From positions 62,001 through 126,000 of the forward strand of contig JAFUAB010000043.1 of assembly GCA_017460885.1 (NCBI GenBank): a stretch of DNA of 64,000 bases. Reading direction: 5' to 3'. Made by a program: the position numbers and the translations under genes. The stretch comes from Lachnospiraceae bacterium. GTDB lineage: Bacteria; Bacillota; Clostridia; Lachnospirales; Lachnospiraceae. The notes under the pieces are model-generated. The model saw only the letters and a program-made list of their open reading frames with translations. It was not told the DNA's origin and made no database searches. Shown here piece by piece: positions 50,509-53,219 of this stretch (within the stretch, counting starts at the first letter, position 1; the number at the start of each line of letters is the position of its first letter).

Positions 50509-50769
50509 ATGCCGAGTATAATGCCGATTTCGGACTTGAGGAATTATACAGAAGTCCTTAAGGAAGTTGATAGTAAAAATCGCGTTTATCTTACAAGAAA
50601 CGGTCATGGTGCATATACGATCATGACGGTGGCTGAAGCTGATGAGTTGGACAGGATCAGAGCTGCTAGAGCACTTGCTACAGATCTGCGAAGAGCTGAA
50701 GATCGGGCTAACCGGGAAGGCTGGATTGATGCGGATGACTTTGACCGGGAGATGGGGATCATAGATTGA
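50509..50769 (+). CDS. Orphan Phd/YefM-family antitoxin
   Basis: This 86-residue protein starts MPSIMPISDLRNYTEVLKEV, the classical Phd/YefM N terminus that binds DNA. RVYLTRNGHGAYTIMTVAEADELD follows, then an acidic helical tail ending WIDADDFDREMG that would wrap the toxin. GGAGGTG lies 6 bases before the ATG at 50509. In this family a ParE/RelE toxin gene normally follows directly. Here the downstream DNA has only a Lys/Glu-rich frame without a start, so the toxin has been lost. Confidence 0.85.
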   Translation: MPSIMPISDLRNYTEVLKEVDSKNRVYLTRNGHGAYTIMTVAEADELDRIRAARALATDLRRAEDRANREGWIDADDFDREMGIID

Positions 50770-51053: not shown

Positions 51054-51103
51054 ATAATATAAGTGACAAAAAATGTCACTTATATTATAATAATGTCACT
51101 TAT
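51054..51103 (+). promoter_or_regulatory. Operator-like triad upstream of the AlbA_2 gene
   Basis: A perfect 15-bp inverted repeat, ATAATATAAGTGACA (51054-51068) and TGTCACTTATATTAT (51074-51088), is followed by a third direct half-site TGTCACTTAT (51094-51103) and GAAAAA. The ribosome site GAGGTG and the ATG lie just after. The same triad occurs inside the gene at 52232-52270. Confidence 0.7.
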
Positions 51104-51121
51104 GAAAAATGAGGTGCTGAA

Positions 51122-52474
51122 ATGAATCTTGGAAAAGAGACTGAGACGCTTGAGTTTAAGAAATCTACTGGTGAGATAAAAGAAGGAATGGTGTCAATAT
51201 CGTCTATCCTGAATAAGCATGGGGTTGGTACATTATACTTCGGAGTAAAACCTAATGGTGATGTAATCGGACAGGATGTTTCCGAGTCGTCACTCCGGGA
51301 TGTTTCAAGGGCTGTATATGAAAATATCAAACCCCAAATATATCCGGCGATTGATGAAGAAGTGCTTGATGGGCGTCATGTTATTAAGGTGGAATTCAGC
51401 GGAGAAAATGCACCGTATTCTGCGGCTGGAAGGTACTATTTGAGAACTGCAGACGAGGATCGAGAAGTAACACCGGAAGAATTGAAGGCATTCTTTGGGG
51501 CAAGCAAACATCGTGGTAAATGGGAGCGGGCAAAGTCCGAGGCTAAAGAAGATAAGGTTGATAGGAAGACTATTAGATCCTTTTGGAAAAAAGCTGTATC
51601 AGTTGGCAGATTGCCGGAAGGGAAATACACCTGTCCTATAATTTTAAACCGTTATGGGCTGGTTACAGGCGGATATTTGACGAATGCGGGAGAGGTTCTG
51701 TTTGGTAATACACATCCCGTTACACTGAAAATGGCTATTTTTGCAACCAATGAGAAGCTGACCTTTTTAGATATGAAGGTCTATGAAGATAACATATATA
51801 ATTTGCTACAGATTGCCGAGGATTACATTTTAAAAAATATCCATTGGAGAAACGAAATTACCGGATTTGAAAGAGAAGAGATTCCGGAGATCCCGATAGC
51901 TGTTATCAGAGAGGTTCTCGCAAACAGCTTTGCTCATGCTATCTATGATAACAGGACACAGCATGAAATATGTATTCATCCGGACATGGTGACAATTTAC
52001 AGTCCGGGGGACTATGCAAGTGAGTATAAGCCCGAGGAATACATTAAGCGAAACATTGAATCTGAACTGAGGAACCCTAATATAGCAAGGCTTCTTTACT
52101 TAACCAAATCTATTGAGAAATTTGGAAGTGGTTTTAAGAGAATAGACAGTTTGTGCAGGGATGCCGGAGTTAAATATTCATATGATAGAACAAAAAATGG
52201 CTTCAAGTTCATTCTGTATAGATCCGGGTCCATAAGTGACACATCAAGTGTCACTTATGATGTCACTTATGAAAAAAGACAGGCTTTAAACATTACAGAA
52301 CAAGCTGTGCTTGCCGTATTAAAACAAAATCCTGCAATATCGCGTGAGGAGATTGCTGAAAGGGTATCAAAGACTGTGAGAACTGTACAGAGAGCATTGG
52401 TGTCTTTGACGGAAAAAGGATATATAAAGCGTGTTGGAGCAAAGAAAAACTCCACATGGGAAGTGCTGAAATAA
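51122..52474 (+). CDS. AlbA_2 (Schlafen-like) domain, ATPase-like and HTH regulator
   Basis: This 450-residue protein starts with an AlbA_2/Schlafen-type domain (TETLEFKKSTGEIKEGMVSI, HGVGTLYFGVKPNGDVIGQ, about residues 1-125). A HATPase_c_4-type region covers about 255-360 (REVLANSFAHAIYD, RNPNIARLLYLTKSIEKFGSGFKRI). The C-terminal winged helix spans about 390-450 (ISREEIAERVSKTVRTVQRAL). The linker at residues 371-383 (SISDTSSVTYDVT) is encoded by copies of TGTCACTTAT, the same sequence found in its promoter. Such proteins are predicted regulators of accessory loci; autoregulation is inferred. It is the only apparently intact gene of the island besides the antitoxin. Confidence 0.88.
   Translation: MNLGKETETLEFKKSTGEIKEGMVSISSILNKHGVGTLYFGVKPNGDVIGQDVSESSLRDVSRAVYENIKPQIYPAIDEEVLDGRHVIKVEFSGENAPYSAAGRYYLRTADEDREVTPEELKAFFGASKHRGKWERAKSEAKEDKVDRKTIRSFWKKAVSVGRLPEGKYTCPIILNRYGLVTGGYLTNAGEVLFGNTHPVTLKMAIFATNEKLTFLDMKVYEDNIYNLLQIAEDYILKNIHWRNEITGFEREEIPEIPIAVIREVLANSFAHAIYDNRTQHEICIHPDMVTIYSPGDYASEYKPEEYIKRNIESELRNPNIARLLYLTKSIEKFGSGFKRIDSLCRDAGVKYSYDRTKNGFKFILYRSGSISDTSSVTYDVTYEKRQALNITEQAVLAVLKQNPAISREEIAERVSKTVRTVQRALVSLTEKGYIKRVGAKKNSTWEVLK
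52232..52270 (+). repeat. Intragenic copy of the operator triad
   Basis: ATAAGTGACA (52232-52241), TGTCACTTAT (52249-52258) and TGTCACTTAT (52261-52270) followed by GAAAAA repeat the order and orientation of the promoter triad, with shorter spacers. They sit exactly in the linker before the HTH domain. Confidence 0.8.
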
Positions 52475-52793: not shown

Positions 52794-53219
52794 ATGTCAG
52801 GCGGGACAAAAGTGTCAAAAGAAAACAGCGAAACAAGACATAAAAACATGGTCTCGATCAAGAGCAGGGACACGAGCATCGAGGTCAAGCTGAGGAAAAT
52901 GCTGTGGGACCGCGGTATCAGATACCGCAAAAACTACAAGGCCCTGCCCGGCAGCCCGGACATTGTGCTCACCAAATACAGGATCGCCAAGATCGCAAGG
53001 AACATAGACCGGGATGATGCGGTCAACAAGCAGCTGATCGCCATAGGATGGACGGTGCTGAGATTTTGGGGCAGGGACATACTGAAATACCCGGATGAGT
53101 GCCTTCGCGCCGTCGAGGAGACGATTTTTGAAAATGAGCTCAGGCAATACGAAAGCGATGCCGAAAGGCGCGAGGAGACCGGAGAAGACGTGATCCCGGA
53201 CTCCGGTACGGAGGAATGA
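52794..53219 (+). CDS. vsr: Vsr-type mismatch endonuclease with internal deletion
   Basis: This 141-residue protein matches Vsr at the start (RHKNMVSIKSRDTSIEVKLRKMLWDRGIRYRKNY, PGSPDIVLTKYRIA) and at the end (ARNIDRDDAVNKQLIAIGWTVLRFWG). The roughly 40 residues that normally join them are absent. That part holds the FWH motif and catalytic His residues, so the enzyme is probably inactive. The junction is in frame near 52990. An acidic C-terminal tail is added. The start is uncertain (ATG 52794, GTG 52812 or ATG 52848; none has a clear ribosome site). No cytosine methyltransferase gene is adjacent. The flavin reductase gene starts 3 bases after the stop. Confidence 0.8.
   Translation: MSGGTKVSKENSETRHKNMVSIKSRDTSIEVKLRKMLWDRGIRYRKNYKALPGSPDIVLTKYRIAKIARNIDRDDAVNKQLIAIGWTVLRFWGRDILKYPDECLRAVEETIFENELRQYESDAERREETGEDVIPDSGTEE

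What the first reader, a model, noticed from the sequence alone, without database searches (positions are those of the whole stretch)
51054..52270. Promoter operator triad duplicated inside the regulator's own coding sequence
The gene at 51122 has an inverted pair ATAAGTGACA/TGTCACTTAT plus a third direct TGTCACTTAT followed by GAAAAA in its promoter. The same order, orientation and flank occur again at 52232-52270, where they encode the linker just before the HTH domain. The copies are about 1.2 kb apart. Either the protein binds both and loops its own gene (auto-repression), or the promoter was seeded by copying from the coding repeat. A regulator whose interdomain linker is its own operator would be a distinctive arrangement.
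Basis: partly seen in the sequence, partly recalled or inferred. Interest (0 to 1): 0.82.

Follow-up and report, generated by a model that had tools for sequence, protein, structure and literature searches.

The report
Regulator gene carries its own operator
In many members of this family of bacterial regulators, the stretch of gene encoding the link just before the DNA-binding domain appears to double as a binding site for that same protein, and in some, as here, it matches sites in the gene's promoter, so protein code and control signal share the same letters.

Summary
Six exact TGTCACTTAT half-sites, three over the promoter and three in the interdomain linker, are the only exact copies in the window. 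Order and orientation match; spacing does not (starts 15/20 versus 17/12 bp), so it is not a block copy. The promoter sites cover the predicted -35, spacer and transcription start.

In 223 full-length relatives (SLFN_AlbA_2 + HATPase_c_4 + winged HTH), own promoter and own linker share DNA far above chance (score >=14: 27 genes; 7 of 1784 cross-cluster swaps). The shared letters differ between clades. Linker codons are frozen in the window's clade. 78 linkers hold 12-bp tandem arrays (0 of 2977 other windows). Eight others hold 11-bp arrays that ignore the reading frame, so the DNA, not the peptide, is repeated. Linker DNA similarity tracks the HTH, not the body of the protein.

Best explanation: the linker is an operator array for its own HTH; here it works with a promoter operator in autorepression. 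Binding, repression and looping are inferred, not shown. Against it: most relatives lack a matching promoter copy, including 65 of the 86 with an array, so the linker array is the commoner element.

The parts
51122..52474 (+). Regulator gene, 450 aa: SLFN_AlbA_2 (aa 6-116), HATPase_c_4 (aa 282-351), winged HTH (aa 389-436)
51059..51068 (-). Promoter half-site 1 (ATAAGTGACA on +); its GTGACA (51063-51068) is also the predicted -35
51074..51083 (+). Promoter half-site 2 (TGTCACTTAT), in the 17-nt spacer between -35 and -10
51086..51091 (+). Predicted -10 box TATAAT, exactly 17 nt after GTGACA
   Evidence: GTGACA with a 17-nt spacer is the best-scoring candidate in 12 of 17 cluster members
51094..51103 (+). 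Promoter half-site 3 (TGTCACTTAT), at the predicted start of transcription, followed by GAAAAA
52223..52288 (+). Interdomain linker (aa 368-389) that carries the intragenic operator
52232..52241 (-). Linker half-site 1 (ATAAGTGACA on +; encodes I-S-D)
52249..52258 (+). Linker half-site 2 (TGTCACTTAT; encodes V-T-Y)
52261..52270 (+). Linker half-site 3 (TGTCACTTAT; encodes V-T-Y), followed by GAAAAA
52286..52429 (+). Winged HTH (HTH_24), the presumed reader of both operators; helix window SKTVRTVQRALVSL (residues 416-429)
51137..51469 (+). SLFN_AlbA_2 (Schlafen-like) domain
51965..52174 (+). HATPase_c_4 domain

Best explanation
The gene encodes a Schlafen-like/ATPase/winged-HTH protein whose interdomain linker DNA is an operator for its own HTH. 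The protein most likely represses its own gene by binding the three promoter half-sites, which cover the predicted -35, the spacer and the start of transcription. It most likely also binds the same half-sites in the linker about 1.17 kb downstream, which would strengthen repression by a DNA loop, a roadblock to elongating polymerase, or local concentration of protein. Across the family the linker DNA (operator) and the adjacent HTH (reader) evolve as one cassette, and the promoter carries the same 'dialect' where a promoter operator exists. Shown by comparison: matching and covarying promoter, linker and HTH; selection on linker DNA rather than peptide. Inferred: that the HTH binds both sites, that binding represses, and how the linker site acts.
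For: (1) Exact sites, only two palindromes in the genome. (2) Own promoter versus own linker in 223 genes: score >=12, 45 genes versus 41 of 1784 cross-cluster swaps; >=14, 27 versus 7 of 1784; >=18, 13 versus 0 of 1784; of 112 best own matches of score >=12, 44 fall in the linker and 2-11 in each of 11 other bins. Own-promoter shuffles: 27 genes versus 5 of 1784 at >=14. (3) Different letters, same rule: TGTCACTTAT/TGTCACTTTG, TGGGTGATAAA, TTGGGAATAAAG, AATGTCGGTTTG, GATTCGATAAATGA, AAATGATAAGAT, TAAAGCGCAA; TGTCACTAGT in Mycoplasmopsis plasmid records. (4) Frozen codons: seven linker codons with pairwise codon identity 1.00 in 13 sequences versus mean 0.47 over 347 other columns. (5) 12-bp arrays in 78 of 223 linkers versus 0 of 2977 other windows; 8 further linkers with out-of-frame 11-bp arrays versus none in 2977. 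(6) Between clusters, linker DNA tracks the HTH (partial rho 0.21, 0 of 300 permutations) and not the body (-0.03). In the VGDK/VGNK cluster, five GGGAATAAA members have E-T in the helix and six others (GGTGAT, or the intermediates GGTAAT and GGGGAT) have G-K-T. (7) Promoter overlap.
Against: No binding or expression data. 178 of 223 genes score below 12 between promoter and linker; of 86 genes with linker arrays 65 have no upstream copy at score >=13, and 49 no copy anywhere in the fetched locus outside the linker, so promoter pairing is not universal. Counting one gene per cluster the signal is smaller (7 of 50 at >=12 against a 0.015 swap rate). Within clusters the own promoter is rarely the single best (2 of 17, 3 of 11, 4 of 9 with ties), and in the NVGL cluster the difference is not significant (p=0.064). 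The VGDK/VGNK cluster shows no raised codon identity in the linker as a whole (best windows lie elsewhere). Some of the 43 positives are probably chance (L219, L255, L269, L260, L198), and L177 looks like a partial copy of its own gene end.
Confidence: 0.8

Rival explanations
1. Promoter and linker match because DNA was copied from one to the other (gene conversion, partial duplication), without function at the linker.
For: Long shared runs in some genes (L036, L254). L177 has a 64-nt upstream stretch that looks like a copied gene end.
Against: Spacing between half-sites differs in the window. The linker codons stay frozen in the window's clade while the rest of the gene varies at synonymous sites. 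The HTH covaries with linker DNA.
Confidence: 0.06
2. The peptide repeat is what matters (flexible or binding linker); the DNA repeats follow from it.
For: Most arrays are 12 bp, in frame, and give four-residue repeats (VTDK, NVGL, QATT).
Against: Eight arrays of 11 bp run through more than one frame and encode non-repetitive peptides. An inverted half-site encodes a different peptide (I-S-D versus V-T-Y). Codons are frozen. Non-coding promoters carry the same DNA.
Confidence: 0.05
3. The tandem repeats are contingency loci: slippage changes copy number and so linker length or (11-bp arrays) the frame of the HTH.
For: Tandem arrays with near-identical units. A unit gained or lost in an 11-bp array would shift the frame.
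Against: The matching promoter copies and inverted half-sites are not explained; 12-bp arrays do not switch frame; units have diverged in several arrays, which argues against rapid turnover.
Confidence: 0.07
4. The linker sequence acts in the mRNA, as a site for the Schlafen/AlbA-like domain or another RNA-binding factor.
For: SLFN_AlbA_2 belongs to a group that acts on RNA (passages; recalled); 4 of 12 plasmid hits are annotated 'RNA-binding domain-containing protein' (H1, H3, H9, H12).
Against: Promoter half-sites 1 and 2 lie upstream of the predicted transcription start; sites occur on both strands and overlap -35. Linker DNA tracks the HTH, not the body that holds the AlbA domain.
Confidence: 0.04
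5. A different host factor, not the gene's own protein, binds both places.
Against: The motif differs between clades and covaries with the gene's own HTH; the exact palindrome pattern occurs nowhere else in the genome.
Confidence: 0.03

Closest known systems
Repressors with auxiliary operators in coding sequence: lac O2 in lacZ, gal OI in galE, the second purR operator inside purR (recalled, not from a call)
   Same: A promoter operator plus a second operator inside a coding sequence; loop or roadblock proposed; in purR the gene is the regulator's own.
   Different: Here the intragenic operator lies in the interdomain linker next to its own reader domain, is often a helically phased 11- or 12-bp array, and diversifies together with the HTH across many clades.
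Schlafen RNase + minimal histidine-kinase-like ATPase + wHTH proteins of BREX and related defence loci (PMC12839542, passages seen)
   Same: Same domain order; described there as widely spread suicidal RNase effectors linked to defence loci.
   Different: 'autoregulat' occurs 0 times in its main text and the passages seen do not mention self-operators. No BREX gene was looked for around the window gene, and its clade has P at the position that is D in 148 of 223 relatives.
Regulators that bind direct repeats as cooperative multimers, e.g. BldC (PMC5859096, listing and start of abstract seen)
   Same: DNA-binding protein on direct repeats.
   Different: BldC sites are not known to be encoded in its own linker (recalled); different family.
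Iteron arrays of plasmid origins and Rep autoregulation (recalled)
   Same: Tandem sites spaced about one helical turn, bound by the protein of the same locus.

Membership tests
SLFN_AlbA_2 / HATPase_c_4 / winged-HTH proteins | N-terminal SLFN_AlbA_2 domain | tested here: met
   PF04326, 63.6 bits, cut-off 25.3
SLFN_AlbA_2 / HATPase_c_4 / winged-HTH proteins | Central HATPase_c_4 | tested here: met
   PF13749, 44.2 bits, cut-off 26
SLFN_AlbA_2 / HATPase_c_4 / winged-HTH proteins | C-terminal winged HTH | tested here: met
   PF13412, 34.8 bits, cut-off 21.9
Active Schlafen-type RNase effector | Three acidic active-site residues (triad recalled from mammalian SLFN work) | tested here: inconclusive
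   E6 and E11 kept; third position is P44 in 16 of 17 cluster members and R in L029 (D in 148 of 223 genes); an acidic residue sits at 47
Active Schlafen-type RNase effector | Cleaves tRNA or other RNA | not testable with these tools
   needs a biochemical assay
Autoregulator with an intragenic auxiliary operator (lac/gal/purR kind) | Operator overlaps the core promoter | tested here: met
   half-sites over predicted -35, spacer and start; the promoter itself is a prediction
Autoregulator with an intragenic auxiliary operator (lac/gal/purR kind) | Second copy of the operator inside a coding sequence | tested here: met
Autoregulator with an intragenic auxiliary operator (lac/gal/purR kind) | Own protein binds both and represses | not testable with these tools
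   comparative evidence only
Autoregulator with an intragenic auxiliary operator (lac/gal/purR kind) | Loop between the two operators | not testable with these tools
   distance about 1.17 kb would allow it

The most novel reading that the evidence does not exclude
A categorically new layout: a portable 'operator + reader' cassette in which the coding sequence of the linker is the cognate operator array of the domain it precedes. When the C-terminal cassette moves to another protein body it brings its own binding sites, and promoters later acquire the same dialect. The linker peptide is then mostly a by-product of an operator.
Probability: 0.5. Interest if true: 0.92.

Novelty: new variant of a known kind. 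Interest (0 to 1): 0.85.

Why it matters
If true, the operator of an uncharacterised DNA-binding protein can be read from its own gene, in a common family linked elsewhere to phage defence (PMC12839542, passages). It offers many natural pairs of HTH and operator to learn a recognition code from, a clear case of DNA-level selection dictating a protein linker (out-of-frame 11-bp arrays), and a way by which a horizontally moving regulator could keep its operator with it.

Tried and rejected
Relatives of the window protein in viral contigs: 13 stretches matched a pattern, none a relative. A phylum-wide protein search gave little: 3 of 149 genomes with a match, the window's own included. Other regulon members: the exact palindrome pattern found none outside the gene; single half-sites genome-wide were not counted. 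Papers: ten searches, of which I saw the listings and the starts of abstracts, and passages of two papers; none of these described self-operators in the linker of this family. The library lacks bioRxiv and most subscription journals, so this is weak evidence of absence. The bioRxiv preprint on bacterial Schlafens cited in PMC12839542 was not read. 'The promoter sites are a block copy of the linker' was rejected on spacing. 'The match reflects base composition' was rejected by own-promoter shuffles and by the rest of the same gene. A first survey of exact matches in 97 genes and a look by eye at 17 of them already showed both the matches and many array-bearing linkers without a promoter copy. 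Cassette exchange between bodies rests on few pairs: of 12 pairs with body <0.45 and HTH >=0.5, L038/L286 (KHQxDVLxDVL) and L277/L127 share the linker clearly, most others do not; L038 and L286 show no evident promoter copy.

Full report
OBSERVATION. The gene at 51122-52474 (+) encodes 450 aa with SLFN_AlbA_2, HATPase_c_4 and a C-terminal winged HTH. TGTCACTTAT occurs exactly six times in the 64-kb window: 51059-51068(-), 51074-51083(+), 51094-51103(+), and 52232-52241(-), 52249-52258(+), 52261-52270(+). The second triad encodes roughly residues 371-383, just before the HTH. Order, orientation and GAAAAA flank agree; spacing does not (15/20 versus 17/12 bp start to start). 0 of 2000 dinucleotide shuffles of the 200 nt upstream reach the observed 15 shared ten-mers or the 17-nt longest match. 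In the 3.6-Mb assembly the exact palindrome pattern with a 2-12 nt gap is found only at these two places.

PROMOTER. GTGACA (51063-51068) is followed after exactly 17 nt by TATAAT (51086-51091). Half-site 1 contains the -35, half-site 2 lies in the spacer and half-site 3 covers the predicted start. Among 17 members of the window's 50%-identity cluster, GTGACA with a 17-nt spacer is the best-scoring (once tied) promoter candidate in the 120 nt upstream in 12; L024 and L013 have near forms, and L026, L029 and L129 do not. A protein bound there should block initiation; this is inference.

DATA SET. Relatives came from genome contigs (20 loci), family, order, class and phylum searches and fetched stretches. 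From 306 loci held at that point, 265 genes or fragments were kept after removal of duplicates and 223 passed the filter (N- and C-terminus present, >=150 nt upstream, no N, 380-640 aa). Not every match listed by the searches was fetched. Linkers were defined by alignment to a profile. The 223 form 50 single-linkage clusters at 50% identity. Searches were drawn mainly from the window's own family, order and class, so other phyla are thinly sampled. A 97%-identical relative (L004) is from an uncultured Lachnospiraceae.

OWN PROMOTER VERSUS OWN LINKER. Ungapped local scores (match +1, mismatch -1.25, both strands, 250 nt upstream) reach 12 in 45 genes (41 of 1784 swaps with other clusters; 5.1 genes expected), 14 in 27 (7 of 1784; 0.9 expected) and 18 in 13 (0 of 1784). 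The linker beats the rest of the gene in 45 of 223 (5.9% in swaps). Of 112 best own matches with score >=12, 44 lie in the linker, which averages 6% of the gene, and 2-11 in each of 11 other bins. Shuffling each gene's own upstream gives 45 of 1784 at >=12 and 5 of 1784 at >=14, against 44 and 27 genes in that run, so composition does not explain it. One gene per cluster: 7 of 50 at >=12 against a swap rate of 0.015. 43 positives (score >=12 and better than the rest of the gene) fall in 11 clusters. I regard six as clear: the window's (14 of 17), VGDK/VGNK (10 of 11), NVGL (6 of 9), IND/NDK (3 of 4), KAQ (2 of 3, with L216 at 12.2 failing the second condition) and NVQI (1 of 2). The single hits in clusters 3, 12, 27 and 36 and the three in cluster 8 are weak or doubtful.

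DIFFERENT LETTERS, SAME RULE. Examples: L235 promoter TGGGTGATAAAGTGGGTGATAAA and linker TGGGTGATAAAATGGGTGATAAA; L270 TTGGGAATAAAGTTGGGAATA in both; L243 AAATGTCGGTTTGAATGTCGGT in both; L146 AAATGATTCGATAAATGAT in both; L062 TAAAGCGCAAAAT in both. Within the window's cluster L011, L013, L024 and L139 read TGTCACTTTG in linker and promoter. Own promoters match better than the average promoter of other members of the same cluster (Wilcoxon p=0.0008 window cluster, p=0.0015 VGDK/VGNK, p=0.064 NVGL; genes treated as independent), although the own promoter is rarely the single best (2 of 17, 3 of 11, 4 of 9 with ties). In two Mycoplasmopsis arginini plasmid records (Mycoplasmatota, 47-48% identity; they look like copies of one locus) three TGTCACTAGT/TGTCACTAAT sites stand upstream and TGTCACTAGT in the linker. 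I read 9 of the 20 plasmid and phage hits. The other seven (L311-L317) show no clear match between upstream and linker; L311 and L314 lie directly behind another gene on the same strand, and L312 and L317 could not be judged properly (broken frame; C-terminus cut).

SELECTION IS ON DNA. In 13 members of the window's clade (those with S-D...V-T linkers; L004, a 97% copy, and L026, L029, L129 left out) codons S372, D373, V377, T378, D380, V381 and T382 have pairwise codon identity 1.00, against a mean of 0.47 (sd 0.19) over 347 other columns, of which 2.9% reach 0.95. The three best six-column windows of the gene are this stretch. In NVGL the six best windows all overlap the linker. VGDK/VGNK does not show this (linker mean 0.57, best windows elsewhere), as expected if its members use two dialects, but it is not evidence for constraint. 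Tandem arrays with 12-bp period (>=20 of 24 identical) stand in 78 of 223 linkers and in 0 of 2977 other windows of equal length. Eight further linkers (L040, L203, L221, L222, L252, L276, L288, L294) have 11-bp arrays, and L127 a 13-bp one. These run through more than one reading frame, for example CATCGGAGAAG repeated in L221, within a peptide that reads ENIGEASEKHRRSIGETSE. In 2977 control windows the only period found was 6 bp, 19 times. Periods of 11 and 12 bp are about one helical turn, as expected for neighbouring sites on one face of DNA (inference).

OPERATOR AND READER COVARY. In the VGDK/VGNK cluster the five members with GGGAATAAA-type linkers (L138, L262, L270, L271, L272) have S/A-E-T in the helix region. 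The other six have G-K-T: four with GGTGAT and two intermediates, L256 (GGTAAT) and L282 (GGGGAT) (L138 itself lacks a promoter match). Over 4876 between-cluster pairs among 104 genes with arrays or promoter matches, linker DNA similarity correlates with HTH identity (partial rho 0.208 given the body; 0 of 300 permutations reach it) and not with body identity (-0.032 given the HTH). A random sample of 5937 pairs from all genes gave the same direction (0.170 against 0.05-0.06). The effect is modest in size. Pairs such as L038/L286 (body 20%, HTH 53%, linker KHQxDVLxDVL in both) suggest that linker and HTH travel together; of 12 such pairs only a few share linkers clearly.

LIMITS. 178 of 223 genes score below 12. 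Of 86 genes with linker arrays, 21 have an upstream copy at score >=13 (L177 among them), 1 a downstream copy, 15 only matches inside the gene (many at the edge of the array itself; in L029 the match ends 5 nt inside the gene and is really upstream), and 49 none. So the linker array is commoner than a matching promoter, and in most array-bearing genes its action cannot be autoregulation through a similar promoter site near the gene. It may act alone (roadblock), on targets not fetched, or have another DNA-level role. No structure prediction was possible.

WHAT THE PROTEIN MAY BE. [quoted passage not shown] The window protein shares the domain order. Its clade has P where most relatives have D at position 44 (P in 16 of 17 cluster members, R in L029; D in 148 of 223), a position I take, from recall, to be the third active-site acid; so it may be a pure regulator. 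A toxic RNase would be a good reason for very tight autorepression; this is speculation.

NOVELTY. Operators inside coding sequence and autoregulation are known (lac O2, gal OI, purR; recalled). I found no description of an operator encoded by the linker of its own reader, as a widespread, diversifying array, in the listings, abstract starts and passages named under Tried and rejected. I call it a new variant of a known kind; the bolder reading is a portable operator-plus-reader cassette.

Noticed in passing
window 52794-53219 (+): Vsr-like ORF that matches only the first third of the PADLOC Vsr profile (positions 7-59 of 156, 1.4e-12); it begins about 320 nt after the regulator gene.
   Followed up: no
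window 50509-50769 (+): Phd/YefM-like antitoxin ORF (below Pfam's cut-off) upstream of the regulator; a possible toxin partner was not looked for.
   Followed up: no
window 51122-52474: Position 44 of the Schlafen-like domain is P in 16 of 17 members of the cluster (R in L029) but D in 148 of 223 relatives; possible loss of RNase activity.
   Followed up: partly
L309, L310 (Mycoplasmopsis arginini plasmid records): The homologue lies beside a type I restriction S gene and, in L309, just before the R gene; in L310 the same gene is annotated in three pieces. In Aliarcobacter (L314) it also directly precedes hsdR.
   Followed up: no
L035, upstream of the gene: The upstream region holds a long array of about eight 12-bp units like GATAAATGACTT, while its linker has only a trace.
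   Followed up: no
L177, upstream of the gene: A 64-nt stretch that resembles the gene's own linker region, probably a partial copy of a related gene end.
   Followed up: no
L012 (contig labelled Planctomycetaceae): An 80% identical partial homologue, perhaps misbinned; a palindrome like ATAAGCGACA...TGTCGCTTAT stands downstream of the gene, a shifted form of the operator (seen output).
   Followed up: no
L017-L022 and other partial loci: Several hits cover only part of the gene; those without an N-terminus or upstream region were not used in the counts.
   Followed up: no
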